A stretch of 64,000 nucleotides of DNA from Halalkalicoccus sp. CG83 (lineage in GTDB: Archaea; Halobacteriota; Halobacteria; Halobacteriales; Halalkalicoccaceae). This document shows, piece after piece, positions 10,392 to 49,151 of this stretch. The position numbers and the translations under genes are program-made. The first letter of the stretch is position 1. Each line of letters begins with the position of its first letter. Location: NCBI RefSeq assembly GCF_037081715.1, contig NZ_JAZDDH010000001.1:2356001-2420000 (forward strand), in the 5' to 3' direction. The notes under the pieces are model-generated. The model saw only the letters and a program-made list of their open reading frames with translations, ran no database searches and had not been told where the DNA came from.

Positions 10392-10392
10392 G

Positions 10393-12399
10393 ATGGTAGG
10401 AGTCTTCGACTACGCACCGTTGATCGCACTGTTCCCGCTCGCGTCGTTCGTCATCGCCCTCGCGGCAGGCCGCTACCTGCCGAAGCGAGGCGGCTACGTC
10501 GGCGTCATCGCGACTGGCGGCTCGCTCCTGCTCTCGCTGTGGGCGATGCTGGCCGTCGCGGGCGGCGAGTTCTACGACCGGACGATCTACACGTGGGTCA
10601 CCGGCGTCGGCGAGGAGACTATCTCGCTCACGTTCGGCATCCTGATCGACCCGCTGTCGTCGATGATGCTCGTGATCGTCTCGCTGATCGCGATGCTGGT
10701 CCACGTCTTCAGCCTGGGTTACATGAACGACGAGGGCGAGACCGGCCTGCCGCGCTACTACGCCGGGCTCGGTCTCTTCACGTTCAGCATGCTCGGGTTC
10801 GTCCTCGCGAACAACCTGCTGATGGCGTTCATGTTCTTCGAGCTCGTCGGGCTCTGTTCGTGGCTGCTGATCGGCTTCTGGTTCCGCGAGGAGGCGCCCC
10901 CGAGCGGCGCGAAGAAGGCGTTTCTCGTCACCCGCTTCGGCGACTACTTCTTCCTGATCGGCGTCGTGGGGATCCTCGCGACGTTCGGCACCGCGCAGTT
11001 CGCCGGTGATGGCTCGTTCCCGCAGCTCGCCCTCGAGGCGGTCGAGGGCGGCGAGACGCTGTTCGGCTACGACGCCCAGACCTGGGTAACGGTGCTCGGC
11101 CTGTTGGTCCTTGGCGGCGTGATGGGTAAGTCCGCACAGTTCCCGCTTCACACCTGGCTGCCCGACGCGATGGAGGGTCCCACGCCGGTCTCGGCGCTGA
11201 TCCACGCGGCGACGATGGTCGCCGCCGGCGTCTTCCTCGTCGCGCGGATGTTCGGCTTCTACGCGCTCAGCCCGACGGCGCTCAGCATCATCGCCTTCAC
11301 CGGCGCCTTCACGGCGCTGTTCGCGGCGACGATGGGCGTCGTCAAGGACGACATCAAGCAGGTGCTCGCGTACTCGACGATCTCCCAGTACGGCTATATG
11401 ATGCTCGGGTTGGGCGTCGCCGGCTACGTCGCGGCGACCTTCCACCTGATGACCCACGCCTTCTTCAAGGCGCTGCTGTTCCTCGGAGCGGGCGCGGTCA
11501 TCATCGGCATGCACCACGAGCAGGACATGTGGAAGATGGGCGGGCTGAAGGACGAGATGCCCGTCACCTACTACACGTTCCTCGCGGGCTCGCTCGCGCT
11601 CGCGGGCATCTTCCCGTTCTCGGGTTTCTGGAGCAAGGACGAGATCGTCTACGACGCGCTGATCGTCGGGCTCGACGACCCGATCATGCTCGCCGCCTAC
11701 GCGATGGGGCTGCTGGCGGTGTTCTTCACCGGCTTCTACACGTTCCGGATGGTGCTGTTGACGTTCCACGGAGAGCCCCGTAGCGACCACGCGGAACACC
11801 CGGTCGCGCTCCGGTGGAACACGAAGCTCCCGCTGGTCGTGCTTGGCATCCTGGCGGTCGTCGCGGGCTTCGTCAACATGGTGCCGGTCGCGGAGCTGAC
11901 GGGCGCGGACATCACCTACCTCACCAAGTGGCTCGACAGCGGCCCCGAGGCGCTCAGCTACTCGACGTACACGGAGCTCGCCGAGGAGTTCGGTGACGTC
12001 CACCACGCGGAGCTGAGCCCGCTCATCGCCGGCGCGGTCACGTTCCTCTTCGCGCTCGCGGGCGTTGGTACGGCGGTGGCGCTGTATCGCGGTCCCGCGC
12101 CGGAACGACACACCGATCGCCTCGGCGCCGCGAAGACGGTGCTCGCGAGCAACTACTACCAGGACGAGTACCAGGTCTGGCTCGCCGAGGGCCTGACCCG
12201 ACGCGTCGCCCGTGGCGCGGACACGTTCGACCAGAGCGTGGTCGACGGCGTCGTCAACGGCACGAGCAGCGTGAGCCTGACCGGAAGCGACCGGCTCCGA
12301 CGGCTCCAGACCGGCGTCGTCACCAACTACGCCGCGTTGATCGCGACCTCGCTGGTCGTGTTGCTGATCGGCTTCGGCATCTACGGAGGGTGGTTCTGA
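10393..12399 (+). CDS. nuoL: NADH dehydrogenase-like complex subunit L (antiporter-like)
   Basis: A 668-residue antiporter-like proton-pumping subunit with about 16 membrane segments. The central signature GVMGKSAQFPLHTWLPDAMEGPTPVSALIHAATMVAAG and the transmembrane Lys and His residues in it are intact, as is VKDDIKQVLAYSTISQYGYM. The C-terminus carries the extended region of ND5 with a lateral-helix-like segment. One base after nuoK. Confidence 0.96.
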   Translation: MVGVFDYAPLIALFPLASFVIALAAGRYLPKRGGYVGVIATGGSLLLSLWAMLAVAGGEFYDRTIYTWVTGVGEETISLTFGILIDPLSSMMLVIVSLIAMLVHVFSLGYMNDEGETGLPRYYAGLGLFTFSMLGFVLANNLLMAFMFFELVGLCSWLLIGFWFREEAPPSGAKKAFLVTRFGDYFFLIGVVGILATFGTAQFAGDGSFPQLALEAVEGGETLFGYDAQTWVTVLGLLVLGGVMGKSAQFPLHTWLPDAMEGPTPVSALIHAATMVAAGVFLVARMFGFYALSPTALSIIAFTGAFTALFAATMGVVKDDIKQVLAYSTISQYGYMMLGLGVAGYVAATFHLMTHAFFKALLFLGAGAVIIGMHHEQDMWKMGGLKDEMPVTYYTFLAGSLALAGIFPFSGFWSKDEIVYDALIVGLDDPIMLAAYAMGLLAVFFTGFYTFRMVLLTFHGEPRSDHAEHPVALRWNTKLPLVVLGILAVVAGFVNMVPVAELTGADITYLTKWLDSGPEALSYSTYTELAEEFGDVHHAELSPLIAGAVTFLFALAGVGTAVALYRGPAPERHTDRLGAAKTVLASNYYQDEYQVWLAEGLTRRVARGADTFDQSVVDGVVNGTSSVSLTGSDRLRRLQTGVVTNYAALIATSLVVLLIGFGIYGGWF

Positions 12400-18772: not shown

Positions 18773-20371
18773 TCATCCCATTCCGACGCGGCGTTCCTCG
18801 CCCTCCCAGTAGTCCTCCCTGAGTTGGTACTTCTGGACCTTCCCGGTGGCGGTCTCGGGGAGGTCGTCGACGAACTCGACGCTCTTCGGGACCTTGTAGC
18901 GCGCGAGTCGTTCGCCCGCGAACTCCCGGAGGTCCTCGCCGGCGAGGTCGGTGCCCGACTTCCGGACGACGATCGCGGTGACGGCCTCGCCCCACTCCTC
19001 GCTGGGCGTCGGGATCACTGCGGCCTTCGCCACGTCGGGATGGTCGTAGAGCACGTCCTCGACCTCGATTGAGGAGACGTTCTCGCCGCCGGAGATGATG
19101 ATGTCCTTCTCGCGGTCCTGGATCGAGACCATGCCGTCCTCGTCGATGGTGGCGAGGTCGCCGGTGTGGAAGTAGCCCGGTAGCTTCGCGTTGAACGCCT
19201 TCTCGGTCGCCTCGGGCTTGTTCAGGTACCGATCCATCACCTGGTTGCCCTTGACGACGATCTCACCGATGCTCGTCCCGTCCCGGGGCACGTCGACGCC
19301 GTCCTCGTCGACCACCCGTACGTCGGTACAGAGCGTCTCGCTGCCCTGGTTCACCTTGAGGTCGCGCCCGCGTTCGGCCAGCCGCCGCGGGGAGTTCGAG
19401 GTGGTGACGATCGGCGCGGTCTCGGTCAGCCCGTAGATGTGAATGATCCGCCAGCCGATCTCGTCCTCGATGGTTCGGATGGTGCTGGTCGCCGGCGCGC
19501 TGCCGGCCGTCGCCAGGCGGACGTCGCGATCGCCGGTCGTTTCGACGTCCGGGTGCTCCTCGTGGTGGGCGATGAGCCGGTTCAGAACCGTCGGTGCGCC
19601 ACACATGAACGAGACGTCGTGGTCGCGTACCCGGCGGAACGTTCCCTCCGGATCGAACGTGCGCTGACAGACGTGCGTCCCGCCGGTTCCGGTGATGGCG
19701 TAGGTGTGGCCCCAGCCGTTACAGTGGAACATCGGCAGCGTCCAGAGATACGTGTCGTCGTCGCGGATCTCCATGTGCTGGTTCAACACGAGGGCGTGCC
19801 AGTGCTCGGTTCGGTGGGTGCGGACGACGCCCTTCGGGTCGCCGGTCGTCCCCGACGTGTAGTTGATCGAGGCGTCGTCGTCCTCGCTGATTTCGGGTCG
19901 TTCGGGCGGAGCGCTCGACTGGTCGGCGATCCACTCCTCGTAGTCGGTCCAATCGCCCTCGATCTCGTCAGCCTGGTAGCCGACGAAGCGCTCCGTGGGG
20001 ACCGCGTCCCGAATCGCCTCGACGTTCTCCGCGTACTCGTAGTCGGCGATGACGATCCCCGCCTCACAGTCGCCGAGGATGTACTCGAAGTCCTCGGGAA
20101 CGAGGAGGTAGTTCATCGGAACGAACGTCGCGCCGATCTGGTTCGCGCCGTAGAGCGTCTCGAGGAAGTAGTGGGTGTTCGGCGAGAGCAGCGCGACCCG
20201 ATCTCCCTTCCCGATCCCTGAGTCGAGGAGCGCGTTCGACACCCGATTGACGCGCTCCGCGAACTCGGCGTAGCTGTACTCGGTCCCGTCGTGTGTGATC
20301 ACCCCGGTCACGTCGTCGTAGACGTCAACCGCACGATCGAGAAAGTCGAGGGTCGTCATGTCTACGTTCAT
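18773..20371 (-). CDS. Acyl-CoA synthetase (AMP-forming)
   Basis: A 532-residue member of the ANL superfamily that activates a carboxylic acid to acyl-AMP and then acyl-CoA. Motifs: YTSGTTGDPKG (A3 phosphate loop), IYGLTETAP (A5), YFHTGDLA (A7), KDIIISGGENVSSIEVE (A8) and C-terminal ATGKVQKYQLRE with the catalytic Lys (A10). It is a close paralogue of the gene at 28398-30008 (same start context TTxDFLDRA). Start set at ATG 20371, about 40 bases after a TATA-like gttatac element on this strand; ATG 20359 is an alternative. Substrate is probably a medium-chain or branched fatty acid, by family. Confidence 0.9.
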   Translation of the reverse strand: MNVDMTTLDFLDRAVDVYDDVTGVITHDGTEYSYAEFAERVNRVSNALLDSGIGKGDRVALLSPNTHYFLETLYGANQIGATFVPMNYLLVPEDFEYILGDCEAGIVIADYEYAENVEAIRDAVPTERFVGYQADEIEGDWTDYEEWIADQSSAPPERPEISEDDDASINYTSGTTGDPKGVVRTHRTEHWHALVLNQHMEIRDDDTYLWTLPMFHCNGWGHTYAITGTGGTHVCQRTFDPEGTFRRVRDHDVSFMCGAPTVLNRLIAHHEEHPDVETTGDRDVRLATAGSAPATSTIRTIEDEIGWRIIHIYGLTETAPIVTTSNSPRRLAERGRDLKVNQGSETLCTDVRVVDEDGVDVPRDGTSIGEIVVKGNQVMDRYLNKPEATEKAFNAKLPGYFHTGDLATIDEDGMVSIQDREKDIIISGGENVSSIEVEDVLYDHPDVAKAAVIPTPSEEWGEAVTAIVVRKSGTDLAGEDLREFAGERLARYKVPKSVEFVDDLPETATGKVQKYQLREDYWEGEERRVGMG

Positions 20372-20437
20372 CGTTGATCGCCTGGTATACCGTGACATGT
20401 GAAACCGTATCGTATAACGTTTTCGTCGGCGAAGCGG

Positions 20438-20560
20438 GTCCTCAGCGCCGGTCGCGTTCCCGCGGGAGCTAGGTCGGATCGCCAGGACGACCTGGCGAAG
20501 ACGAAAGCGACTGAAGTCACGGTACGTAACGCCGAACAGGCGATGCAGCTTCACGGCGGG
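20438..20560 (+). pseudogene. Decayed C-terminal fragment of an acyl-CoA dehydrogenase
   Basis: In one plus frame this stretch reads AGRVPAGARSD, then LAKTKATEVTVRNAEQAMQ and LHGG. That matches the order and spacing of the C-terminal helix region of acyl-CoA dehydrogenases (compare AKLYASEISREVANEAIQ followed by IHGG in the intact gene at 52840-53982). The homology stops before the expected GYGY and catalytic-Glu segment, and no start codon with the rest of the enzyme lies upstream, where the divergent synthetase begins. It is therefore a relic of about 40 codons. Identification rests on reading the motif, not on a search. Confidence 0.55.
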
Positions 20561-20667
20561 CGATCGATTTTCTCAACGATCGTAGGATCGCTCGAGACCT
20601 CTAATCGAACCACCGGTTCGGCGTTTCAACGTCGGCGATACGGATCCGTCGGTGTTCTCTCATCCGA

Positions 20668-20690
20668 CTCATAAATGAGGTGTTTTATCA
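20668..20690 (+). promoter_or_regulatory. TATA-like box with adjoining palindrome
   Basis: A perfect 5-bp palindrome with a two-base centre (ctcat-aa-atgag, 20668-20679) sits directly before tgttttatca (20681-20690), which is about 25 bases upstream of ATG 20713. The palindrome occupies the BRE region and could be a repressor or activator site. Confidence 0.4.
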
Positions 20691-20712
20691 TGGGACGGAG
20701 TGTGCAGATCGT

Positions 20713-21696
20713 ATGCAGCCAGGTGTAGTCATTCCGCGGAACTTGGAGCGGGATCCGACCGAACTCGCCATTAACGCCGAGAGGTGGGGATACGACTCGG
20801 TTTGGATGGGGGAGTTGTGGGGGACCAGTTCGGTAGTCAAGCTCACGGAGATCGCATGCCGAACGGAGGAGATCGCAATCGGCACTGCGATCCTGAACAT
20901 CTACTCCCGGTCGCCGGCAGTACTCGCGATGACTGCTGCGACCCTCGACCGAGTCTCAGACGGACGGGCTTACCTCGGGGTTGGCCCGAGTACGCCGACA
21001 GCGATCGAGAACATTCACGGCATGGAGTTCGATCGCCCCGCGCGTCGGGCCCACGAAACGATCGACCTGATCCAACGACTCGCTACGACCGAGAATGATC
21101 GAATCGACTATGACGGCGAACTGGTCAGCGTTACTGGCGTACCCACGTTAGGACGGGACATCCCCATCTATTTCGCTGCTCTCGGGCCGGCGAATCGCCG
21201 GATCGTCGGTAGACTATGTGACGGCTGGATTCCTCATAACATCCCCCTCTTCAAGCTGAACGACGCCTTTGAGACCATCGCGGAAACGGCTCGAGAGGCC
21301 GGACGCGATCCGGATTCCATAACGATCGCGCCATACGTCCCTGCAGCCGTAAGCGACGACGACGAGAGAGCCCGGAAAGCACTCCGGGGTCATATCGCGT
21401 ACTACACGTCGAGTTCCGAAGGGTACAGACGAGCGGTGGAACCCTATTATCCGAACGAGACTACCGAGATAGCCGAACGATGGCGAGCGGGTGATCGAGG
21501 TGAAGCCGTGGACCTCGTGACCGACGATATGGTTCGTGATCTCGGTATCGCGGGTACACCGGAGAGCGCACGGAATCAGTTCCGCGAACTCCTCGAGGAA
21601 TCGATCATCGACCGCCCCCTGATCACCATCCCAGAACAAGCAGCGGACGACCTCGCCGAACGGACGGTTAAGGAACTCTCTCCGGTTGAAAAATGA
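20713..21696 (+). CDS. LLM-class flavin/F420-dependent oxidoreductase (Mer-like)
   Basis: A 327-residue protein of the bacterial luciferase-like fold, close to the 5,10-methylenetetrahydromethanopterin reductase branch. Features are the N-terminal strand GVVIPRN, RWGYDSVWMGELWG, GTAILNIYSRSPAVLAMTAATLD, GRAYLGVGPS and the C-terminal GTPESARNQFRELLE. These enzymes use F420 or FMN to reduce or oxygenate diverse substrates. ATG 20713 was chosen for the TATA-like box 25 bases upstream; an in-frame codon at 20680 would precede it. Codon use is less GC-rich than in flanking housekeeping genes. A role in the neighbouring acid or organohalide cassette is inferred from position only. Confidence 0.8.
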   Translation: MQPGVVIPRNLERDPTELAINAERWGYDSVWMGELWGTSSVVKLTEIACRTEEIAIGTAILNIYSRSPAVLAMTAATLDRVSDGRAYLGVGPSTPTAIENIHGMEFDRPARRAHETIDLIQRLATTENDRIDYDGELVSVTGVPTLGRDIPIYFAALGPANRRIVGRLCDGWIPHNIPLFKLNDAFETIAETAREAGRDPDSITIAPYVPAAVSDDDERARKALRGHIAYYTSSSEGYRRAVEPYYPNETTEIAERWRAGDRGEAVDLVTDDMVRDLGIAGTPESARNQFRELLEESIIDRPLITIPEQAADDLAERTVKELSPVEK

Positions 21697-21801
21697 CGTC
21701 CCTTCCGTCGTTCGAATACGGCCTGCCTCACCGAACCCTCCATCGCTGATCCCTATCGTCTCAATCGGGCTGTAGACGCCCGTTCTCTACACGAACACAA
21801 C

Positions 21802-21810
21802 GATTTAATA
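21802..21810 (+). promoter_or_regulatory. TATA-like box of the symporter operon
   Basis: gatttaata lies about 25 bases before ATG 21833, giving an essentially leaderless message for the three-gene transport unit. Confidence 0.5.
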
Positions 21811-21832
21811 GCTGTAATATGACGAGATAGGT

Positions 21833-22117
21833 ATGCAGACACATACCAAGGAGGCAGGCGCGACGATAGGCGCTTTCGTGGCGTTGACGAGCGTGATACA
21901 CGGCGGGATCTGGTTCACCGTATTTGGAACGCCGGACTTCACGGTGTTGGGCTTCCCGTTTCACTACTTCTGGCTGGTCGCGGGTGGTCCGGCCGCGATG
22001 TTCGTTCTATACGCGGTGTACTATCGATATATCACGACGGCGATTATAGACGAGAAAGAACGGTTGAGAGCTGACGTTAGCGAGACGAGTACCGAGCCGA
22101 GTGATATCGATGGTTAA
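21833..22117 (+). CDS. Small two-helix membrane protein, DUF3311-like
   Basis: A 94-residue protein with two hydrophobic segments (about 10-32 and 40-65) and a charged C-terminal tail. The core VLGFPFHYFWLVAGGPAAMFVLYAVYYRY resembles the LGxPFxYFWxL pattern of DUF3311 proteins, which are usually encoded just upstream of sodium:solute symporters. Its gene overlaps the symporter start by eight bases, so a role as a small accessory subunit is likely but unproven. Confidence 0.65.
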   Translation: MQTHTKEAGATIGAFVALTSVIHGGIWFTVFGTPDFTVLGFPFHYFWLVAGGPAAMFVLYAVYYRYITTAIIDEKERLRADVSETSTEPSDIDG

Positions 22118-23774
22118 GCCGCTTCAGCAGGCCGGGGAATACCCATTTCAGGAGACGTTTGCTGAACTCGCGATCCCTCTCGCGATTCTCCTCACGACCT
22201 TCGTCGTCTATTACGGGATCAGCTACTTCATGAAAAACCGGATCCAGGGGACTGACGATTACATGGTGGCTGGACGGACCATCGGTCCGTTCGTCAACGG
22301 ATCTGCGATCTCCGCAACGTGGGAAAGTCTGGCGACGTTTATGGGTGTCGTCGCATTGATGTTAACGGTCCAGATCCCGTTTCTGGCGGTCTGGACTAAC
22401 TTCTTGTTGTCGATCCCGCTGATCGTCATTCTCTACGGGCAGACGCTCCGCCGGTTGGGCTCCTATACGCCAGCGACCTTCTGTAAGGATCGGTACGGCA
22501 ACACGATGTCGATCGTAATGGCTCTGCTCATCGTGTTCGTCATGCTAATGTACGCGTTGGGACAGTTCATCGGTCTCGCGCAGATCACGGAGATCCTGTT
22601 CGGCTGGGATTACACCCTCTCGCTATTCGTCATCGCGGCGCTGGTGACGGGATACGTGGTGATCGCCGGCATGTGGGGTGTCTCGTACAACTCCGCCCTA
22701 CAGTTTTGGATCATGTTGACCGCGGCGTTCATTCCGATGATGTTCGTCCTCAATCAGCTCGGTTCGAGTGGCTGGTTCTTTCCGCCGCTTGGCTACGGCG
22801 ACCTCGTACCGGAGATGCAGCGAGCCAATCCCGAATTCTTCGACATGGCGTTCGACACCCGCTGGTACTTCGCGATGTTCCTCGCAATGGCACTCGGCCC
22901 CATCGGCATGCCCCATCTGGCCCAGCGTATCTTCACCAGTCGTGACGTCGAAGCCGGTCGTAGGACCGTCTTCTGGTTCATCACGGTCACCGCGCTGATG
23001 TTCGCGACGATGTACTCCGTTGCGTTCGCCGGCGTTTTCTGGCTCGGAAACGAGGGGTACGAGATCGCGGACGCCGACCTGGACAAGATGATCTTCTATC
23101 TCAACTTCGCTTTCAACGGCGATTCGATCACTGGCTACGTCGTCGCCGGTGCGATCGCTGGCGGTCTCTCAACCGTGAGCGGACACATGCTCGCGATCAG
23201 CGCCGCCGTCGCGAACGACGTTATCGAGGCCCTCGAACTCGAAGTCTCCGAGGACCGTAAGACCCAGTTCGGATACGCGTCAGTCCTCGGTGCCGGTCTC
23301 CTCATCGCGCTGATCGCACTCGACCCACCAGCGTTCCTCGTCGTTAGTATCCTGTGGGCGTTCGCGATCAGTGCAGCCGCGATCACGCCGGTCATCGTGT
23401 TCGGTGTCTGGTCGGCTCGTGTGAACCGGTACGGTGCGATCGCGTCCAGTTTCGTCGGGTTCGTCACCGTTCTCGTACTCTCACCGCATGCGTTCAGCGG
23501 TATCGGAGCCGGCGGTGAAGGACTGACGGCTCTGCTCGGTATCGACGCGATCATGATCGCATTCCCGCTCTCGATCATCACGTTCGTAGTCGTTTCGCTC
23601 ATCGCTGAGCGGATCGACGCTCTAAACGTCGATCCGGAGTCCAACCGGGCGCTCATCAACGAAATGCATGGCTACCCGGACGATGACATCGATCGCTTTA
23701 CCAGCGCCGCTCCGCTTATCGTCCTCGTAGTGCTCATGTTGCCGATCCTCTGGTGGGGAATCCAGCCCTGGTGA
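22110..23774 (+). CDS. Sodium:solute symporter (SSS family)
   Basis: A 554-residue transporter with about 13 membrane segments. It carries SSS features: DDYMVAGRTIGPFVNGSAISATWESLATFMG near the N-terminus, the ALGPIGMPHLAQRIFTSRD region, and GGLSTVSGHMLAISAAVANDV containing the Ser/Thr residues that bind sodium. This family imports acetate, propionate, pyruvate, proline, pantothenate and similar solutes. ATG 22110 is used; GTG 22101 is possible. It lies between two tiny membrane-protein genes with overlapping ends. Next to two dehalogenase homologues, a haloacid or short-chain carboxylate substrate is a reasonable inference. Confidence 0.85.
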   Translation: MVKPLQQAGEYPFQETFAELAIPLAILLTTFVVYYGISYFMKNRIQGTDDYMVAGRTIGPFVNGSAISATWESLATFMGVVALMLTVQIPFLAVWTNFLLSIPLIVILYGQTLRRLGSYTPATFCKDRYGNTMSIVMALLIVFVMLMYALGQFIGLAQITEILFGWDYTLSLFVIAALVTGYVVIAGMWGVSYNSALQFWIMLTAAFIPMMFVLNQLGSSGWFFPPLGYGDLVPEMQRANPEFFDMAFDTRWYFAMFLAMALGPIGMPHLAQRIFTSRDVEAGRRTVFWFITVTALMFATMYSVAFAGVFWLGNEGYEIADADLDKMIFYLNFAFNGDSITGYVVAGAIAGGLSTVSGHMLAISAAVANDVIEALELEVSEDRKTQFGYASVLGAGLLIALIALDPPAFLVVSILWAFAISAAAITPVIVFGVWSARVNRYGAIASSFVGFVTVLVLSPHAFSGIGAGGEGLTALLGIDAIMIAFPLSIITFVVVSLIAERIDALNVDPESNRALINEMHGYPDDDIDRFTSAAPLIVLVVLMLPILWWGIQPW

Positions 23775-23953
23775 GCGATAACGACCATCATACGCGGCTG
23801 TTCGGAACCCGGGTTGGAACGGGCGTATGGCTGGTGATCGGCATCAGTACGGGCGTTCTCGCAGTCCACTGGGGCGATCGGATTACGGCTCTCATCGGAA
23901 TCGGGTGGGTGATGCTTGCCGTCTTCAGCTACCTCGAGTATCGGAAGGCGTGA
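23771..23953 (+). CDS. Small two-helix membrane protein
   Basis: A 60-residue protein starting at a GTG that overlaps the symporter stop (GTGA). It has a polar N-terminus followed by two hydrophobic stretches (about 14-31 and 35-53). I do not recognise the family. Translational coupling suggests it works with the symporter. Confidence 0.6.
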   Translation: MSDNDHHTRLFGTRVGTGVWLVIGISTGVLAVHWGDRITALIGIGWVMLAVFSYLEYRKA

Positions 23954-24089
23954 GGGGGACCGTGGGTCCTCGGTTGACCGGCAGTTTACGGTGACTAACC
24001 GGGCGCTACCGGTGACACCCGTTTTCGAGACGTGGAGGTCTCCGGAGGCGGCGCGGTGTGGTCGTTCGGATTCCAGGACAAACGACGAG

Positions 24090-24773
24090 CTACACACCTA
24101 GTTCGTCGGCGACGTCATGGAACGTCTCGACGGTGGAGTCCGGATCGGAAGCGAACGGGTCCCACGAACCACCCTTGCGGTTGAGCCAGACGCCTTGCAT
24201 GCCCGCGTGCATCGCTCCCTGGACGTCGAACGAAGGCCCAGCGACATGTGTGATGTTCCGGATGGGCGTCCCAGTTCGGCCGGCAGCGTGTCGATAAATC
24301 TCGACGTGCGGCTTGAACGTCTCGATCTCGTGTGCGCTGATCGTATCGGCGATCAGGTCGTCGAGATCGGCATGAGTGACCATCGAGGTGAGCATCTCGG
24401 GGTTTCCGTTCGAGAGGACGTAAACGTCGTACCCGCCCTCGATCAGCCGCTCGATTCCTGATCGAACGTCCTCGAAGGGGTCCAATTCGTGATAAACCGA
24501 AAGGATTTCGTCCCGCTGATCCGCACTCACCTCGACGGCGTGAGTTTCGAGGGCGTACTGGAGGGCATCACGGTTCATCTCGTAGAACGATTGGTAGGCG
24601 TCGACGTAGTTGCTGACCATGGTGTAGAACAACGAACGGGTGCGCCACAGATCGGAAACGGGCCGTGGGTCATCGATCGTATCGGCGAGTGCTCGTTCAG
24701 CGGCGCTCGGGTCGACCAGCGTCCCATACGAATCGACCGTTATCGTCTCGCACCGCGTGGTATCCAATGACAT
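24090..24773 (-). CDS. Haloacid dehalogenase type II-like HAD hydrolase
   Basis: A 227-residue HAD protein whose length and motifs match the L-2-haloacid dehalogenase (type II) group. Present are nucleophile D14 in DSYGT, T18, R44 in WRTRSLFY, S121 in LSNGNPEML, K154 in FKPH, Y160 and D183 in PSFDVQGA. Two residues of the classical active site differ: the Ser and Asn of the SSNAWD loop are A178 and P180 here. Dehalogenation of 2-haloalkanoates by an ester intermediate on D14 is therefore possible but not assured; a phosphatase or other HAD activity is the alternative. A TATA-like box (24796-24805) lies 23 or more bases upstream on this strand. Confidence 0.75.
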   Translation of the reverse strand: MSLDTTRCETITVDSYGTLVDPSAAERALADTIDDPRPVSDLWRTRSLFYTMVSNYVDAYQSFYEMNRDALQYALETHAVEVSADQRDEILSVYHELDPFEDVRSGIERLIEGGYDVYVLSNGNPEMLTSMVTHADLDDLIADTISAHEIETFKPHVEIYRHAAGRTGTPIRNITHVAGPSFDVQGAMHAGMQGVWLNRKGGSWDPFASDPDSTVETFHDVADELGV

Positions 24774-24795
24774 GGTATGGAATCCACGGCTCCCA

Positions 24796-24832
24796 CTATA
24801 AAACTACGGAAGGGGCTCTCTCCATAGAGAGC
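24796..24832 (-). promoter_or_regulatory. Promoter and hairpin upstream of the HAD gene
   Basis: On the minus strand agttttatag (24796-24805) is a TATA-like box for the gene starting at 24773. Just upstream lies a perfect 7-bp inverted repeat, gctctct-ccat-agagagc (24815-24832). It could be an operator for the HAD gene or mark the 3' end of the preceding DehI-like gene, whose stop is at 24856. Confidence 0.4.
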
Positions 24833-24855
24833 GGACGGAAAACCGGCGTCGCCGA

Positions 24856-25740
24856 TCAGAGCACCGATCGTTCGCCCGTCGCATCGACGGCGGCTGCCGA
24901 TAGCACCAACACCGGGATGACCGTCTCGATCGGTCCGGAGTTGAACGACCGGAACAGTCCCCGTAAGTCGTCGACCGTCCGCTCGTCGAAACCTCGGTCG
25001 TTCAGTACGGCCGGTGTGAGCTGTGGGGTGTACTGGAGTGAATCGACGTAGTCGTCGGTCAGTGTCGCGACATCATCGCAGGCGTTCGTGAACGTATCAG
25101 TGGTCAACGCCGGCTCGAGATCGGTCCAAAGCGGCGTGAGGAACTCCGGCCATTGAGCTAGACAGCGATAGATGCTCGGAAGACCAGTGTCGATCCCGTG
25201 AAAGGACTGGATCGATTCCACGACCGTCCGCAGCTCGTCAGGAACGTCGTCAAACGCGATCATGGTGGGGGGCCGGCCACGATCTCGATCGAGCCAGTCG
25301 GGTAGCGGTGCAGTCGCAGCGTAGCTCGGATCCGGATCGTTACCGATCGGACGGCCGTGAAGCCCCCGGTCGATGACTTCGAACAGTGCTGCGAGTCGCG
25401 GTGCGACGACGTCGAAGGTTGCGATTTGGCCCCGAAGTTCCCCATACTCGGCCGGCGGCAGATCAACGTCTTCACGGCGATACACTGGTAGCTCGTGGGC
25501 TTCCGACATCGTTGAGAGGACAGTATCGCGATACCGAACTGAAAACCGACCGAATGCCCGAGTCTGGAACAACGGCTTTACTTGAGCCCACGCGTGACGG
25601 AGGAACTCCGGATGGTTAGCCATCGATGTCCGGAAGATCCAGTTGACGATCGGAGCTCGAAACGTGGCTTTGACATCGTCGTACAACCCACGCTTCCAGC
25701 CCGTCGCTTCCTGTTCGTAGAGTTGCTTCTCGGTATCCAT
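24856..25740 (-). CDS. DehI-type (group I) 2-haloacid dehalogenase homologue
   Basis: A 294-residue, all-helical protein matching the length of the group I D,L-2-haloacid dehalogenase DehI, which hydrolyses both enantiomers of 2-haloacids by direct water attack. The sequence shows the internal duplication of the family: HPEFLRHAWAQVKPLFQTRAF (about 43-63) recurs as WPEFLTPLWTDLEPALTTDTF (about 197-217). D184 in FHGIDTGLPS falls near the position of the catalytic Asp189 of the Pseudomonas enzyme. It is encoded on the same strand as the HAD-type homologue with 82 bases between them. Activity not proven; haloarchaea carry several uncharacterised DehI-family proteins. Confidence 0.78.
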   Translation of the reverse strand: MDTEKQLYEQEATGWKRGLYDDVKATFRAPIVNWIFRTSMANHPEFLRHAWAQVKPLFQTRAFGRFSVRYRDTVLSTMSEAHELPVYRREDVDLPPAEYGELRGQIATFDVVAPRLAALFEVIDRGLHGRPIGNDPDPSYAATAPLPDWLDRDRGRPPTMIAFDDVPDELRTVVESIQSFHGIDTGLPSIYRCLAQWPEFLTPLWTDLEPALTTDTFTNACDDVATLTDDYVDSLQYTPQLTPAVLNDRGFDERTVDDLRGLFRSFNSGPIETVIPVLVLSAAAVDATGERSVL

Positions 25741-25789
25741 ACGCTATGAAAAATCGCCATCGAACTAACTGTTCCCATCGTCTCAACCG

Positions 25790-25804
25790 GAGGGAGCCTC
25801 CCTC
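25790..25804. repeat. Small palindrome upstream of the DehI-like gene
   Basis: gagggag-c-ctccctc is a perfect 7-bp inverted repeat about 50 bases upstream of the DehI-like start and 130 bases before the divergent GNAT gene. It may be an operator in this 196-base divergent gap; nothing else was seen there. Confidence 0.3.
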
Positions 25805-25936
25805 TTCCTCGACGTTCCGTCCGTCGTCGGTCTCGCCGCAGCTCACCCGCAAAATCGAGCGAACCGGGCGTTCTCGCGTTCCCCTCCCCCCACATTCACC
25901 GAAAGAACTAATCGCCGTATCGTGCTATGCTCATAC

Positions 25937-26425
25937 ATGGCAATCCGGGGAGCGACGACCGACGACATCGAAGGCATCAGGCGGGTCGCCCGGCAGTCCT
26001 GGCGAACGGACTACCCGGAGATACTGAGCCGCGAGACGGCAGAGGAGGCGGTCGAGGAATGGTACGACCCTGACCGTCTCGAGGAGGAGATCGAGAGCAC
26101 CGATGCGCTGATCGCGGTGTTCGAGACGGTCGACGGCGACATCGGCGGGTTCGCTCAGATCGTCTGGGACGCGCAAACGGGCACCGTCCTCCGCCTGTAC
26201 GTCGCACCGGATCACCGCGGTCGGGGGATCGGAACAGATCTGCTGACGTGGACGGTCGATGCGCTCGCCGACCGGGACGTCGAGCGAGTTCGAGCGTTGG
26301 TCCTCAGCGAGAACGAACCGGGAAACGCCTTCTACCGATCGTTCGGCTTCGAGAAAACGGGGGAGGGCCGGACGACGATCGGCGACGATGCCTACCGCGA
26401 GAACACCTACTCGATGCCGGTGTAG
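25937..26425 (+). CDS. GNAT family N-acetyltransferase
   Basis: A 162-residue single-domain acetyltransferase. The acetyl-CoA-binding motif A VLRLYVAPDHRGRGIGTDLL (about 90-110) and the later NEPGNAFYRSFGFEKTGE segment are typical of RimI-like or small-molecule GNATs. ATG 25937 starts MAIRGATTDD; a GTG five codons upstream is possible. Substrate unknown. Composition returns here to the GC-rich style of the chromosome, suggesting the accessory segment ends just before it. Confidence 0.85.
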   Translation: MAIRGATTDDIEGIRRVARQSWRTDYPEILSRETAEEAVEEWYDPDRLEEEIESTDALIAVFETVDGDIGGFAQIVWDAQTGTVLRLYVAPDHRGRGIGTDLLTWTVDALADRDVERVRALVLSENEPGNAFYRSFGFEKTGEGRTTIGDDAYRENTYSMPV

Positions 26426-26565
26426 TACCGCTCTCGCCGGGATCGACGCCAGTTCGTGGAGGATCCCGCCGCGTTCCGATCGACTCGCGTGATCGACTCG
26501 ACGATCCTCGCGAGAGTCACTGTCGTCGATCGAGGAGATTGCCGTTCTGACGGCACTACGCGCCA

Positions 26566-26607
26566 GTTCCGTCGATCGGATTCACCGATCCGACGGAACC
26601 TTAATAC
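26566..26607 (+). promoter_or_regulatory. Promoter of the acyl-CoA mutase gene with 14-bp inverted repeat
   Basis: An almost perfect inverted repeat (left arm 26566-26579, right arm 26585-26599, one bulged base, five-base centre) runs straight into the TATA-like cttaatac (26600-26607), 25 bases before ATG 26632. The arms begin gttccgtcg and end cgacggaac. A dimeric regulator bound here would touch the BRE/TATA region. Confidence 0.5.
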
Positions 26608-26631
26608 AGAACCGTGACAAAGGACGCGACC

Positions 26632-28338
26632 ATGTACGACGACGACGAGCTCTCCCAGATACGGGAGTCGAAGTCCCGGTGGAAGGAGGAGACCCTCGAT
26701 CCGCTGCTCGAGGCCCACGGGGAGCGAAAGGAGCGCTTCGCGACCGTCTCGAACCTCGAGGTCGACCGGCTCTACACGCCCGACGACGTCGCCGACCTCG
26801 ACTACGAGGCGGATCTCGGCTTTCCCGGCGAGGAGCCCTACACCCGCGGACCGTACCCGACGATGTACCGGGGACGGACGTGGACGATGCGCCAGTTCGC
26901 GGGCTTCGGCACCGCCGAGGAGACCAACGAGCGCTTTCACTATCTGATCGACGAGGGCCAGACGGGACTGTCGGTGGCGTTCGACATGCCCGCGTTGATG
27001 GGCAAGGACTCCGACGACCCCCTCTCGGAGGGCGAGGTCGGAAAGGAGGGCGTCGCCGTCGACACGCTGCGCGACATGGAGGTGCTGTTCGACGGGATCG
27101 ACGTCGGCGAGGTCTCGACGAGCTTCACCATCAACCCCTCGGCCGCGGTGATCTACGCGATGTACGTCGCGCTCGCCGACCAGCAGGGCGTCCCCCGTGA
27201 GGAGGTGCGCGGTACCCTCCAGAACGACATGCTCAAGGAGTTCATCGCCCAGAAGGAGTGGGTCGTCCCCCCGGAGCCCTCCCTGAAGGTGGTCACCGAC
27301 ACCATCGAGTTCGCCGTCGAGGAGACCCCGAAGTTCAGTCCGGTATCGATTTCGGGCTACCACATCCGCGAGGCCGGCTCCACCGCCGTTCAGGAGCTCG
27401 CCTTCACGCTCGCGGACGGCTTCGCTTACGTCGAGGACTGTCTCGACCGAGGACTCGAGATCGATTCGTTCGCCCCGCAGCTCTCCTTCTTCTTCAACTC
27501 CCACAACTCCATCTTCGAGGAGGTCGCGAAGTTCCGCGCCGGCCGGCGGATCTACGCCCGGCTCATGGACGAGTGGTACGACGCCGAGCGACCCGAATCC
27601 AAGCGGATGAAGTTCCACACCCAGACGGCAGGCCAGTCGCTCACGGCCCAGCAGCCGCTCAACAACGTCGCCCGCGTGACGATCCAGGCGCTCGCGGGCG
27701 TCCTCGGCGGGACCCAGAGCCTCCACACCAACTCCTTCGACGAGGCGCTTGCGCTGCCCTCCGAGGAGGCGGTACGGGTCGCGCTCCGAACCCAGCAGAT
27801 CATCGCCGAGGAGTCGGGCGCCGCCGACATCGTCGACCCATTGGGAGGGAGCTTCGCGATCGAGGCGCTGACCGACGAGACCGAACGTCGGACGATGGAG
27901 TATCTAGAGGAGATCCGCGAGATGGGCGAGGGCTCGGTCCGCGACGGCGTCCTCCGGGGGATCTCGGAGGGCTACTTCCACCGCGAGATCCAGGACGCCT
28001 CCTACGAGTACCAGGAGCGCGTCGACCGCGGCGAGGAGGTCGTCGTCGGCGTCAACCGCTACACGATCGAGGAGGACACGAGCCCCGAGGTCCTCCACGT
28101 CGACGAGCAGGCCGCCGCCGAACGCCAGTTCGAGCGACTCGAGGAGGTCAAGGAGGAACGCGACGATAGCGCAGTCGAGACGTGTCTCTCGGAGCTGCAG
28201 TCGGCGGTCCGCGACGGGGAGAACGTGATGCCGTACGTCGTCGACGCGGTGAAGGCCTACGCGACGATGGGCGAGATCATGGACGTCTTCGAGGCCGAGC
28301 ACGGCCGGTACCAGGAGACCGCCGGGCTGGCACGCTGA
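26632..28338 (+). CDS. B12-dependent acyl-CoA mutase large subunit, isobutyryl-CoA mutase-like
   Basis: A 568-residue TIM-barrel subunit of the methylmalonyl-CoA mutase family without the C-terminal B12 domain, as usual in archaea, where the cobalamin subunit is separate. Numbering coincides with the Propionibacterium mutase: S114, Q197, Y243 and H244 are conserved. The two substrate-carboxylate residues are changed: F89 (RQFAGF) replaces Tyr89 and Q207 (IAQKEW) replaces Arg207. That Phe/Gln pair is known from isobutyryl-CoA mutase, which interconverts isobutyryl- and n-butyryl-CoA. Automatic naming as methylmalonyl-CoA mutase may therefore be wrong. The acyl-CoA synthetase next door (59 bases) could supply its substrate. 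A candidate B12-binding partner is at 47650. Confidence 0.9.
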   Translation: MYDDDELSQIRESKSRWKEETLDPLLEAHGERKERFATVSNLEVDRLYTPDDVADLDYEADLGFPGEEPYTRGPYPTMYRGRTWTMRQFAGFGTAEETNERFHYLIDEGQTGLSVAFDMPALMGKDSDDPLSEGEVGKEGVAVDTLRDMEVLFDGIDVGEVSTSFTINPSAAVIYAMYVALADQQGVPREEVRGTLQNDMLKEFIAQKEWVVPPEPSLKVVTDTIEFAVEETPKFSPVSISGYHIREAGSTAVQELAFTLADGFAYVEDCLDRGLEIDSFAPQLSFFFNSHNSIFEEVAKFRAGRRIYARLMDEWYDAERPESKRMKFHTQTAGQSLTAQQPLNNVARVTIQALAGVLGGTQSLHTNSFDEALALPSEEAVRVALRTQQIIAEESGAADIVDPLGGSFAIEALTDETERRTMEYLEEIREMGEGSVRDGVLRGISEGYFHREIQDASYEYQERVDRGEEVVVGVNRYTIEEDTSPEVLHVDEQAAAERQFERLEEVKEERDDSAVETCLSELQSAVRDGENVMPYVVDAVKAYATMGEIMDVFEAEHGRYQETAGLAR

Positions 28339-28397: not shown

Positions 28398-30008
28398 ATG
28401 CACAAGCCACTGCTGACGACGGATTTTCTAGATCGTGCACGGAATCACTACGGCGATCAGGAGGCCGTCGTGGCGACGACGGGCGAGCGCTTCACCTACG
28501 AGGAGCTCGGCGACCGGGTCGACCGGCTCTCGGCGGCCCTCCAGGAGCGCGGCGTCGAGAAGGGCGACCGGGTGGCGGTGCTGGATCCGAACACCCACTA
28601 TCACCTCGAGGCCGCCTACGCGATCATGCAGCTCGGAGCGATTCACACGCCGCTCAACTACCGCCTGGTGCCGGACGACTTCGAGTACATCCTCGACGAC
28701 GCGGGCGTGACGGCGATCGTCGCCGACCACGAACACGCAGAGAAGGTCGAACCGATCCGCGAGTCGGTGCCGACCGAGCTCTACGTCTCGAACGACGCCG
28801 ACGCCACGGAGGGCGACTGGGAGGACTACGAGGCGCTCATCGACCGCGAGGGCGAGTACGATCGCCCCGAGATGAGCGAGGACGACGTCATCACGATCAA
28901 CTACACCTCGGGGACGACCGGCGATCCCAAGGGGGTGTGTCGGACCCACCGCGCGGAGACGATCCACGCCTATCTGGTCAGCACCCACCAGGAGATCCGC
29001 GACGACGACGTCTACCTCTGGACGCTGCCGATGTTCCACGTCAACGGCTGGGGCCACATCTACGCCATCACGGGCATGGGCGCGAGACACGTCTGTACCC
29101 GCGGGGTCGACGCCGAGGGGATCTTCGAGGCCATCCGCCAGGAGGACGTCTCGTACATGTGTGCGGCGCCGACGGTGCTCAACATGCTGAGCGACTACTA
29201 CGACGAGCACGACCCCGAGACCATCGGCGCGAACCCCGTCCGGGTCGCGACCGCCGGTGCGGCGCCGCCCGAGGCGACCATCCGGGCCGTCGAGGACGAG
29301 TTCGGCTGGTATCTCAAACACGTCTACGGCGCGACCGAGACCGGCCCGCTGATCACGACCTCCGACTGTCGACGCCTCTTCGACGAGGACGCCTCGGAGC
29401 GGTTCTCGATCAAGAAACGCCAGGGACTGGGCTACCTCGGCACCGACGTGCGAGTGGTCGACGAGGACGGCGAGGACGTCCCCCGCGACGACGCCACCAT
29501 CGGCGAGATCGTCGTCCGGGGCAACCAGGTGATGGACAGCTACTGGGAGAAGCCCGAGGCGACCGAGGAGGCGTTCAACGATCGGCTGGAGGGCTACTAC
29601 CACACGGGCGATCTCGCCATGGTGGACGAACACGGGATGCTCTCGATCCAGGACCGGAAGAAGGACATCATCATCTCCGGCGGCGAGAACATCTCTACCA
29701 TCGAGCTCGAGGACACGCTGTTCGACCACCCCGAGGTGGCCGACGCGGCGGTGATCCCCGCACCCAGCGAGAAGTGGGGTGAGACGCCGAAGGCGTTCAT
29801 CGTACCCGCCAGCGGCGACCCCAACGACCCGGGCGTGACTCCCGAGGAGATCACGGAGTTCACCCGCGAGCGCCTGGCGGGCTACAAGGTCATCCACGAG
29901 GTCGAGTTCGTCAAAAACCTCCCCACGACGGCGACCGGCAAGACCCAGAAGTTCGAGCTCCGCGAGCGCGAGTGGGAGGACGAGGAGAGCATGGTGGGTC
30001 AAGGGTGA
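28398..30008 (+). CDS. Acyl-CoA synthetase (AMP-forming)
   Basis: A 536-residue ANL-superfamily ligase with YTSGTTGDPKGV, YGATETGP, YYHTGDLAMVD, KKDIIISGGENISTIELE and TATGKTQKFELRE carrying the catalytic Lys. It is a paralogue of the protein at 18773-20371. Location directly after the acyl-CoA mutase suggests activation of a short or branched acid such as isobutyrate or butyrate, which is inference. TATA-like box about 30 bases upstream of the ATG. Confidence 0.9.
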   Translation: MHKPLLTTDFLDRARNHYGDQEAVVATTGERFTYEELGDRVDRLSAALQERGVEKGDRVAVLDPNTHYHLEAAYAIMQLGAIHTPLNYRLVPDDFEYILDDAGVTAIVADHEHAEKVEPIRESVPTELYVSNDADATEGDWEDYEALIDREGEYDRPEMSEDDVITINYTSGTTGDPKGVCRTHRAETIHAYLVSTHQEIRDDDVYLWTLPMFHVNGWGHIYAITGMGARHVCTRGVDAEGIFEAIRQEDVSYMCAAPTVLNMLSDYYDEHDPETIGANPVRVATAGAAPPEATIRAVEDEFGWYLKHVYGATETGPLITTSDCRRLFDEDASERFSIKKRQGLGYLGTDVRVVDEDGEDVPRDDATIGEIVVRGNQVMDSYWEKPEATEEAFNDRLEGYYHTGDLAMVDEHGMLSIQDRKKDIIISGGENISTIELEDTLFDHPEVADAAVIPAPSEKWGETPKAFIVPASGDPNDPGVTPEEITEFTRERLAGYKVIHEVEFVKNLPTTATGKTQKFELREREWEDEESMVGQG

Positions 30009-47463: not shown

Positions 47464-47649
47464 AGGAGGGATATACGGCCGAGAGGCATTACCCTTGTCA
47501 GAAACCGTATTCGGGACGGATTCCCGCACGAGGTAACCGAATGAAGTTACTTCGAGGGGTGCGAAGACCGTCACGGACATCCGTTAAAGTGAAAGTTCTC
47601 GGTTGGGAAATGGGCACATGAACCGATCGTCGGATCGGAGGTGGGTTGC

Positions 47650-48066
47650 GTGAGCGTCGAAGGCGACCAGCGGGCGATCCGCTGTCTCGTCGCGAAGGTC
47701 GGCCTCGATGGCCACGATCGGGGTGCACACGTCATCTCGCGAGCGTTTCGGGACGCGGGGTTCGAAGTGATCTACTCGGGGCTGCACAACGCGCCCGACG
47801 AGATCGTCCAGGCCGCCGTCCAGGAGGACGTCGACGTGCTCGGAATCTCCATCCTCTCGGGGGCGCACAACACGCTCATCCCGAAGATCGTCGCGGGGCT
47901 CGAGGAGTACGACGCCTTCGAGGACACGCTGATCATCGTCGGCGGCGTGATCCCCGAGAAGGACAAGGAGCCGCTGAGGGAGAAGGGCGTCGACGCGATC
48001 TTCGGACCGGGCACGCCGATGAAGGAGACGATCGAGTTCGTCCGCGAGAACGCTCCCGAACGATGA
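47650..48066 (+). CDS. Cobalamin-binding small subunit of acyl-CoA mutase
   Basis: A 138-residue B12-binding domain. The base-off/His-on signature D20-G-H22-D-R-G25, the SILSGAH loop and the VGGVIP turn are intact. In archaea this chain pairs with a separate barrel subunit to form methylmalonyl-CoA mutase or a related mutase. GTG 47650 is preferred (MSVEGDQRAIRCLV); GTG 47641 adds three residues. Cotranslated with meaB. The only barrel subunit in the window is the Phe/Gln-type protein at 26632, so either that protein is its partner or the partner lies elsewhere. Confidence 0.92.
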   Translation: MSVEGDQRAIRCLVAKVGLDGHDRGAHVISRAFRDAGFEVIYSGLHNAPDEIVQAAVQEDVDVLGISILSGAHNTLIPKIVAGLEEYDAFEDTLIIVGGVIPEKDKEPLREKGVDAIFGPGTPMKETIEFVRENAPER

Positions 48067-49061
48067 GCACGGGCGAGAGCGAGAACGACCTAGTCACGCA
48101 GCTGCTGGCCGGCAAACACCGGGCGCTGGCGCGCACGATCACGAAGATCGAGAACCGCGCGCCGGGCTATCGCGACCTCGTCGCGGGACTCCACGAGCAC
48201 ACCGGCGACGCGGAGGTGATCGGCATCACCGGCAGCCCCGGCGCGGGCAAGTCGACGCTCGTCGATAAGCTCGCGCTCAGCTACAGGGAAGAGGGGCTCA
48301 CGGTGGGCGTGATCGCGGTCGACCCCTCCTCGCCGTACACGGGCGGCGCGGTGCTCGGCGACCGCATCCGGATGGCCTCGACCACCGGCGACATGGACAC
48401 GTTCGTGCGTTCGATGGGCGCGCGCGGGCAGTTAGGGGGACTGTCGACGGCGACCGGTGACGCGATCAAGGCGTTCGACGCCTTCGGGATGGACCGGATC
48501 ATCGTCGAGACCGTCGGCGCCGGACAGAACGAGGTCGACATCGTCCGTACCGCCGACACGGTCGCGGTGCTCGTCCAGCCCGAGAGCGGCGACGACATCC
48601 AGATGCTGAAGGCGGGCATCCTCGAGATCGGCGACGTCTTCGTCGTCAACAAGGCCGACATGGCCGGCGCCGATCGAACCGTGAAACAGCTCTCGGAGAT
48701 GCTCGAGGGCCGCAACGACGGGGACGACGGCTGGAAGCCGGAGATCGTCGAGACCGTCGCGACGAGCGGCGAGGGGATCGACGACCTCCTGGAGACGTTC
48801 GCGGCCCACCGCGAGTACCTGGAGTCGTCGGGGGCGCTCGAGGAGAAGGCGCGCGCACGATACGCCGAGGAGGTTCGGACGCTACTGCGCGAGGACGCCG
48901 GCCACCTGCTCGAGGACGAACTCGAGCGTCGGGGCGGCATCGAGTCGGTGGTCGACCGAATCGCCGCCCGCGAGATCGACCCGTACACGGTCGCCGACGA
49001 GATCGTGACGCCGCTCGAACGCTGTCTCGACGCGCGCGAGGAGACGCCGCCACATCGGTAA
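48063..49061 (+). CDS. meaB: Mutase-associated GTPase chaperone MeaB
   Basis: A 332-residue G3E-family GTPase that gates adenosylcobalamin loading and protects B12 mutases from inactivation. Walker A GSPGAGKST, the DPSSPYTGGAVLGDRIRM segment, ETVGAGQNEVDI (switch region) and NKAD are all present. It overlaps the B12-subunit gene by ATGA, as in many organisms. Confidence 0.94.
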   Translation: MSTGESENDLVTQLLAGKHRALARTITKIENRAPGYRDLVAGLHEHTGDAEVIGITGSPGAGKSTLVDKLALSYREEGLTVGVIAVDPSSPYTGGAVLGDRIRMASTTGDMDTFVRSMGARGQLGGLSTATGDAIKAFDAFGMDRIIVETVGAGQNEVDIVRTADTVAVLVQPESGDDIQMLKAGILEIGDVFVVNKADMAGADRTVKQLSEMLEGRNDGDDGWKPEIVETVATSGEGIDDLLETFAAHREYLESSGALEEKARARYAEEVRTLLREDAGHLLEDELERRGGIESVVDRIAAREIDPYTVADEIVTPLERCLDAREETPPHR

Positions 49062-49114
49062 CAGGCGTTACCGGATAAACTATCGACCCCGTAGGGAAGC
49101 TGCCCAAAAATATC

Positions 49115-49143
49115 GTACTGAATGCAGAGGCTGTGTTCAGTAC
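49115..49143. repeat. Hairpin after meaB
   Basis: gtactgaa (49115-49122) pairs perfectly with ttcagtac (49136-49143); after a two-base mismatch, cag/ctg adds three pairs around an agg loop. It lies just past the orphan gene's stop (49152, minus strand) and 54 bases after meaB, so it may be a bidirectional transcript end or the remnant end of an insertion. Confidence 0.4.
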
Positions 49144-49151
49144 CCGGGGGA

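What the first reader, a model, noticed from the sequence alone, without database searches (positions are those of the whole stretch)
20713..25740. Candidate haloacid uptake and dehalogenation island
Within 5 kb of lower-GC DNA sit a sodium:solute symporter with two tiny membrane partners, a type II HAD-fold dehalogenase homologue, a structurally unrelated DehI-type (group I) dehalogenase homologue, and a luciferase-like oxidoreductase. Two non-homologous enzyme families for the same class of substrate next to a carboxylate-type importer is hard to explain unless the substrate is a 2-haloacid or similar. Products (lactate, glycolate) could enter central metabolism.
Basis: inference. Interest (0 to 1): 0.65.

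Follow-up and report, generated by a model that had tools for sequence, protein, structure and literature searches.

The report
Acquired carboxylate-uptake insert with dehalogenase homologues
A salt-loving archaeon has gained a 6.2-kb block of DNA that carries a sodium-driven acid importer and relatives of two dehalogenase families, but the DehI relative lacks its catalytic residues and the importer is usually found beside branched-acid (vitamin B12 mutase) genes, so breakdown of halogenated acids is unproven and not the likeliest role.

Summary
The genes are as described and the island is real. Against five congeners, window 20432-26590 (6.16 kb, 59.5% GC versus 65.5% for the window) is an insert beside the mutA/fadD/coxA locus. 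It carries LLM, sm1-SSS-sm2, HAD, DehI-like and GNAT genes. Related blocks lie on Natronorubrum and Haloterrigena megaplasmids, inside a larger acyl-CoA pathway cluster (ligase, two acyl-CoA dehydrogenases, B12-dependent CoA mutase, thiolase in most).

The haloacid reading is only partly supported. The DehI-like protein has the group I fold (TM 0.80), but the catalytic Asp and Asn of DehI/HadD are Ile and Ala. No readable copy among 62 haloarchaeal homologues has either, while another residue set is nearly invariant. The HAD passes the type II cut-off and keeps 7 of 9 catalytic residues, but it is an extra copy of a family found in 242 of 391 haloarchaea. The symporter lies near an isobutyryl-CoA-mutase-like MutA in 11 of 13 genomes.

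Most likely this is a laterally acquired uptake module for a short, probably branched carboxylate feeding CoA activation and B12 isomerisation. The HAD/DehI-like pair is a conserved accessory of unknown chemistry. Haloacid use remains possible and is directly testable.

The parts
20432..26590 (.). Acquired insert (about 6.16 kb) between fadD1 and mutA
   Evidence: DNA homology to congener G134 (L111) stops at 20431 and resumes at 26591; absent at the same locus in four more congeners; GC 0.595 against 0.655 for the window
20680..21696 (+). LLM-class (F420/luciferase-like) oxidoreductase
   Evidence: PF00296 E 1.1e-69; nearest solved relatives are F420-dependent methylene-H4MPT reductases; 66-70% identical copies in the Natronorubrum/Haloterrigena clusters
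21833..22117 (+). sm1, small membrane partner of the symporter (DUF4212-like)
   Evidence: PF13937 20.9 bits, below the cut-off of 30; conserved before the SSS gene in related loci
22101..23774 (+). SSS-family sodium:carboxylate-type symporter
   Evidence: PF00474 E 1.2e-43; closest NCBIfam subfamily TIGR03648, below cut-off; 86-89% identical in 10 other genomes and 62-77% in two
23753..23953 (+). sm2, second small membrane partner
   Evidence: no family; two hydrophobic segments; conserved after the SSS gene at 47-63% identity
24090..24773 (-). HAD type II homologue (annotated haloacid dehalogenase type II in relatives)
   Evidence: TIGR01428 151 bits, cut-off 125.4; D14, T18, R44, S121, K154, Y160, D183 kept; L-DEX S175/N177 are A178/P180
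24856..25740 (-). DehI-like protein with remodelled active site
   Evidence: PF10778 119 bits; predicted model pLDDT 94.3, TM 0.80 to D-2-haloacid dehalogenase 5gzx; HadD W48/N131/Y134/D205 are I31/A113/L116/I190
25922..26425 (+). GNAT acetyltransferase, part of the insert
   Evidence: PF00583 E 1.7e-15; absent at the locus in congeners, next to mutA in related clusters
26614..28338 (+). resident B12-dependent acyl-CoA mutase large subunit, isobutyryl-CoA-mutase-like motif F/A/Q
   Evidence: best solved relative 4r3u (2-hydroxyisobutyryl-CoA mutase, 608 bits) ahead of human methylmalonyl-CoA mutase (496 bits); motifs; core gene in 244 of 293 genomes
18773..20374 (-). resident acyl-CoA synthetase (fadD1) left of the insert
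   Evidence: PF00501; 91% identical and next to mutA in congener G134
28398..30008 (+). resident acyl-CoA synthetase (fadD2)
   Evidence: PF00501; 83-87% identical and syntenic in five congeners
47641..49061 (+). MutB (B12-binding subunit, 47641-48066) and MeaB (about 48063-49061): the only PF02310 match in this genome

Best explanation
A laterally acquired 6.16-kb insert adds a sodium-coupled carboxylate uptake system (sm1-SSS-sm2) with a HAD, a DehI-like protein, an LLM oxidoreductase and a GNAT to a resident acyl-CoA locus (fadD, mutA). The likely flow is: the symporter takes up a short, probably branched carboxylate such as isobutyrate; an acyl-CoA ligase activates it; the isobutyryl-CoA-mutase-like MutA with MutB/MeaB isomerises it to the straight-chain acyl-CoA; beta-oxidation genes finish it. 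The HAD/DehI-like pair is a conserved accessory. The DehI-like protein probably does not dehalogenate, because its water-activating Asp and Asn are gone and another residue set is fixed; it more likely binds or transforms a related small acid. Shown: the insert, the gene identities, the conserved clustering and the lost residues. Inferred: the substrate, the order of steps, and the role of HAD, DehI-like, LLM and GNAT.
For: Empty site in congeners. The symporter lies within a few kb of mutA in 11 of 13 genomes that hold it. Clusters with ligase, acyl-CoA dehydrogenases, 3-hydroxyacyl-CoA dehydrogenase, MutA/MutB and MaoC, with thiolase and MeaB in most, on Natronorubrum and Haloterrigena plasmids, and a compact version in a MAG (L128). 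MutA carries F/A/Q at positions where the genome's other mutase and human methylmalonyl-CoA mutase have Y/A/R and 2-hydroxyisobutyryl-CoA mutase has I/D/Q. DehI-like active-site residues replaced across 62 haloarchaeal sequences. HAD is a common haloarchaeal family. A related haloarchaeal SSS transporter followed by UspA was proposed to carry acetate (PMC3102087), and the plasmid clusters also have a Usp gene after sm2.
Against: MutA is a core haloarchaeal gene (244 of 293 genomes), so sitting next to it in this window could be chance, although the plasmid clusters carry their own copy. The specificity reading of F/A/Q rests on my own knowledge of the mutase family; the primary papers were not available. 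MutB/MeaB lie 20 kb away in this genome. In two of 13 genomes the symporter has no mutA nearby. The HAD still passes the type II equivalog cut-off. No growth or enzyme data exist.
Confidence: 0.5

Rival explanations
1. One reading: an uptake and dehalogenation island for 2-haloacids, with the SSS importing the acid and HAD and DehI-like releasing halide from the two enantiomers.
For: HAD above the TIGR01428 cut-off with nucleophile D14 and six other catalytic residues kept; DehI fold; HAD and DehI-like adjacent in 15 of 56 fetched loci in two different orientations; a dehalogenase-permease operon is known in Burkholderia MBA4 (PMC3552994).
Against: DehI-like lacks Asp205/Asn131 equivalents in every readable haloarchaeal copy; the Asp position is a gap in 3 of 62, and D205N abolishes activity in HadD (PMC5780510). 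HAD lacks the S175/N177 equivalents. HAD is present in 242 of 391 haloarchaea regardless of DehI (co-occurrence p 0.07). Clusters hold acyl-CoA genes and no lactate or glycolate oxidation genes.
Confidence: 0.2
2. The HAD/DehI-like pair is an independent detoxification unit for some non-halogen small electrophile or acid and only travels with the transporter; the transporter works with the acyl-CoA genes.
For: DehI-HAD pairs also occur divergently without transporter or mutase in Haloterrigena and related genomes (L071, L073, L080, L150). The symporter occurs without DehI and HAD near mutA in G182.
Against: Transporter and DehI co-occur far above chance (10 of 13 against 46 of 378, p 3.5e-7, not corrected for phylogeny).
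Confidence: 0.2
3. A neutral passenger: the insert arrived by recombination between conserved flanks and has no coherent function here.
For: Low GC, no MutB/MeaB in the insert, absent in congeners.
Against: All ORFs are intact and the same gene set recurs in several genera with 86-89% identical symporters.
Confidence: 0.1

Closest known systems
Group I 2-haloacid dehalogenases (DehI of P. putida PP3, HadD AJ1, DL-DEX Mb)
   Same: PF10778; same two-repeat helical fold (TM 0.72-0.80); Ser204 and Thr76 equivalents kept
   Different: catalytic Asp205/189 and Asn131/114 are Ile190 and Ala113, Trp48 and Tyr134 are Ile31 and Leu116; haloarchaeal set N33, W34, R37, D110, R115, R192, Q196 conserved instead
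Type II L-2-haloacid dehalogenases (L-DEX YL, DehIVa)
   Same: TIGR01428 above cut-off; 7 of 9 catalytic residues
   Different: S175 is A178 and N177 is P180; one of a widespread haloarchaeal family, with a second copy in the same genome
Isobutyryl-CoA / 2-hydroxyisobutyryl-CoA mutases
   Same: separate large subunit, best solved relative 4r3u; B12 subunit and MeaB in the genome
   Different: lacks the Ile and Asp found at the corresponding positions of 4r3u; carries Phe/Ala/Gln; annotated as methylmalonyl-CoA mutase family in relatives
Haloarchaeal putative acetate SSS transporter with UspA (Anderson et al. 2011, PMC3102087)
   Same: SSS family, Usp gene downstream in the plasmid clusters, acyl-CoA synthetases nearby
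   Different: rarer (13 of 391 genomes), has two small membrane partners, linked to mutA instead of acetyl-CoA synthetase; whether the two transporters are orthologous was not tested
Burkholderia MBA4 haloacid operon (deh4a-deh4p)
   Same: dehalogenase homologue next to a carboxylate importer
   Different: different permease, proven dehalogenase, no mutase or acyl-CoA genes reported

Membership tests
Group I 2-haloacid dehalogenase (DehI/D-DEX) | PF10778 domain and two-repeat helical fold | tested here: met
   119 bits; AlphaFold model TM 0.80 to 5gzx
Group I 2-haloacid dehalogenase (DehI/D-DEX) | water-activating Asp (D189 DehI / D205 HadD) | tested here: not met
   I190; I or V in 59 haloarchaeal sequences, gap in the other 3 of 62
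Group I 2-haloacid dehalogenase (DehI/D-DEX) | assisting Asn (N114 DehI / N131 HadD) | tested here: not met
   A113; no Asn in any of 62
Group I 2-haloacid dehalogenase (DehI/D-DEX) | halide release from 2-haloacids | not testable with these tools
   needs an enzyme assay
Type II L-2-haloacid dehalogenase | TIGR01428 score above curated cut-off | tested here: met
   151 against 125.4 bits
Type II L-2-haloacid dehalogenase | nine catalytic residues of L-DEX YL (listed in PMC4899344) | tested here: not met
   7 of 9; S175 is A178, N177 is P180. Not decisive: DehRhb works with different catalytic residues (PMC8554231)
Isobutyryl-CoA mutase | B12 mutase large subunit nearer to HCM/ICM than to MCM | tested here: met
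   608 bits to 4r3u, 496 to human MCM; only part of fused ICM (IcmF) aligned
Isobutyryl-CoA mutase | Phe and Gln in place of MCM Tyr89 and Arg207 (own knowledge of the determinants) | tested here: met
   RQFAGF, KEFIAQKEW in the window and RQFAGF, KEFIAQ in all cluster copies; own MCM copy has RQYAG, KEYIARNTY
Isobutyryl-CoA mutase | catalysis on isobutyryl-CoA | not testable with these tools
   needs an enzyme assay
VC_2705/DUF4212-type two-part SSS symporter | scores above TIGR03648 and DUF4212 cut-offs | tested here: not met
   192.8 against 320.75 and 20.9 against 30 bits; arrangement alike but not a member by these models
Genomic island | empty site in close relatives and atypical composition | tested here: met
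   no terminal repeats or integrase found

The most novel reading that the evidence does not exclude
The haloarchaeal DehI-like family (56 of 391 genomes) is a neofunctionalised group I dehalogenase fold with a different conserved pocket. With its HAD partner and a three-part sodium symporter it handles a branched short-chain acid in a B12-mutase pathway, a function not described for either family.
Probability: 0.3. Interest if true: 0.55.

Novelty: new variant of a known kind. Interest (0 to 1): 0.36.

Why it matters
NCBI and Pfam names (haloacid dehalogenase type II; halocarboxylic acid dehydrogenase DehI family) would lead annotators to call these plasmid clusters haloacid degradation genes. 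The residue evidence says the DehI-like proteins of haloarchaea probably do something else, and the clustering points to a concrete, testable substrate class. If haloacid activity were found all the same, it would mean a group I enzyme without the known catalytic Asp/Asn pair.

Tried and rejected
Rejected: a DehI catalytic Asp moved to the symmetric repeat (position 35 is Ile, Phe, Val or Tyr, never Asp; the pseudo-symmetric positions 33 and 267 are Asn in 60 and 48 of 62, noted but not interpretable without coordinates). Rejected: HAD presence as a marker of haloacid use (242 of 391 genomes; weak co-occurrence with DehI, Fisher p 0.07). Rejected: 2-haloisobutyrate to 2-hydroxyisobutyrate followed by 2-hydroxyisobutyryl-CoA mutase. 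A DL-DEX mutant has been crystallised with 2-bromo-2-methylpropionate (3wj8), but the catalytic Asp/Asn and the residues of 4r3u are missing here.
Full report
Setting. The window is part of a 3.64-Mb haloarchaeal genome (G000:C1:2356001-2420000). An LLM-class oxidoreductase is followed by a small membrane ORF, an SSS symporter and a second small ORF, with the symporter overlapping both small ORFs. A HAD and a DehI-like gene follow on the minus strand. The HAD passes the curated type II cut-off (TIGR01428, 151 against 125.4 bits). The DehI-like protein scores 119 bits against PF10778.

The island. Five congeners (L110-L114) were read at the same locus. All share NuoN, DHH and CBS genes on one side and MutA, FadD2 and CoxA on the other, and none has the LLM, sm1, SSS, sm2, HAD, DehI-like or GNAT genes there. 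Congener G134 gives both edges: DNA homology ends at window 20431 and resumes at 26591. In the other four congeners ECH and FadD1 are also missing, so they show absence but not the left edge. The insert is therefore 6.16 kb, GC 0.595 against 0.655 for the window. No terminal repeats stood out. The symporter is 89% identical to that of G237, of another family, where the flanking NuoN, DHH, CBS and CoxA are only 53-71% identical; this fits lateral transfer but could also reflect slow evolution of the symporter. In G237 the transporter and HAD lie at the corresponding place between CBS and MutA, so recombination through conserved flanks is plausible.

The company it keeps. The symporter was found in 13 of 391 haloarchaeal genomes. 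It lies within a few kb of a mutA gene in 11 of them; 10 of the 13 also have DehI somewhere against 46 of 378 other genomes (Fisher p 3.5e-7, not corrected for phylogeny). The annotated records of Haloterrigena turkmenica pHTUR01 and two Natronorubrum plasmids show the fullest version: IclR regulator, LLM, acyl-CoA dehydrogenase, 3-hydroxyacyl-CoA dehydrogenase, thioesterase, AMP-binding ligase, DehI-like, HAD, sm1, SSS, sm2, Usp, mutase large subunit, GNAT, B12-binding subunit, MeaB (in two of the three), a second acyl-CoA dehydrogenase and MaoC; the two Natronorubrum plasmids add an enoyl-CoA hydratase, a CoA-transferase and a thiolase with its OB-fold partner. A MAG has a compact version (L128). 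These are genes of carboxylic-acid activation, B12-dependent isomerisation and beta-oxidation. No lactate or glycolate oxidation gene is annotated among them.

The mutase. Window MutA is closest among solved structures to 2-hydroxyisobutyryl-CoA mutase (608 bits), ahead of human methylmalonyl-CoA mutase (496 bits). At three positions it reads Phe, Ala, Gln, as do the congener and cluster copies; the other mutase of this genome reads Tyr, Ala, Arg like methylmalonyl-CoA mutases, and 4r3u reads Ile, Asp, Gln. From my own knowledge of the family, Phe/Ala/Gln is the isobutyryl-CoA mutase pattern; the papers that would confirm it were not held. This mutase is core in haloarchaea (244 of 293 genomes), so in this window it is a resident gene and only the plasmid clusters carry it as part of the block. 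The genome has one B12-binding subunit, at 47641-48066, with MeaB beside it.

The DehI-like protein. The AlphaFold model is confident (pLDDT 94.3) and matches D-2-haloacid dehalogenase with TM 0.80; only group I dehalogenases match. A profile of haloarchaeal sequences aligned to HadD puts Asn131 at A113, Tyr134 at L116, Asn203 at P188, Ser204 at S189 and Asp205 at I190; Trp48 falls at I31. In HadD, D205N abolishes activity and N131D removes about 96% (PMC5780510). Among 62 haloarchaeal homologues the Asp position is Ile or Val (gap in three, which include truncated copies) and the Asn position is never Asn, while N33, W34, R37, D110, R115, R192 and Q196 are nearly or fully invariant. This is the pattern of a kept protein with a changed pocket, not of a decaying gene; the new chemistry is unknown.

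The HAD. Seven of the nine residues that matter in L-DEX YL are kept; S175 and N177 are Ala and Pro (residue list from PMC4899344). That does not prove inactivity: DehRhb uses other residues (PMC8554231). But the family is found in 242 of 391 haloarchaeal genomes, including all five congeners in that sample and a 68% identical second copy in this genome beside a 3-hydroxyacyl-CoA dehydrogenase-like gene. Its presence is therefore no marker of haloacid use. HAD beside DehI-like in 15 of 56 fetched loci, in same-strand and divergent arrangements, does argue that the two work together.

Conclusion. I give 0.5 to uptake of a short, probably branched carboxylate for the CoA/B12-mutase route with HAD/DehI-like as accessory, 0.2 to haloacids, 0.2 to an independent HAD/DehI-like detoxification unit and 0.1 to a passenger block.

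Noticed in passing
window 49001-50000: A sharp GC dip to 0.49 with one 180-aa ORF (49152-49694, minus strand) that looks like a membrane-anchored protein of unknown family; the lowest-GC kilobase of the window.
   Followed up: no
L091 (Haladaptatus caseinilyticus plasmid) 10001-10882; L132 8001-10614; L155: DehI-like genes also sit beside cobalamin biosynthesis genes in one genome and beside another MutA copy in others, a possible loose link of the family with B12-dependent metabolism.
   Followed up: partly
L071, L073, L080, L150: HAD and DehI-like genes form a divergent pair without transporter or mutase in Haloterrigena and related genomes.
   Followed up: partly
G000:C1:1994314-1994994 (L157): Second HAD type II copy of this genome (68% identical, motif VTAGWFD) upstream of a 3-hydroxyacyl-CoA dehydrogenase-like gene.
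   Followed up: partly
L127 (Natronorubrum halalkaliphilum): The larger cluster is present but no HAD was detected between DehI-like and sm1.
   Followed up: no
window 24856-25740: Bacterial DehI has the most complex known protein knot (PMC4985754); the same fold in haloarchaeal proteins suggests a knotted protein in a high-salt cytoplasm. Knot not computed.
   Followed up: no
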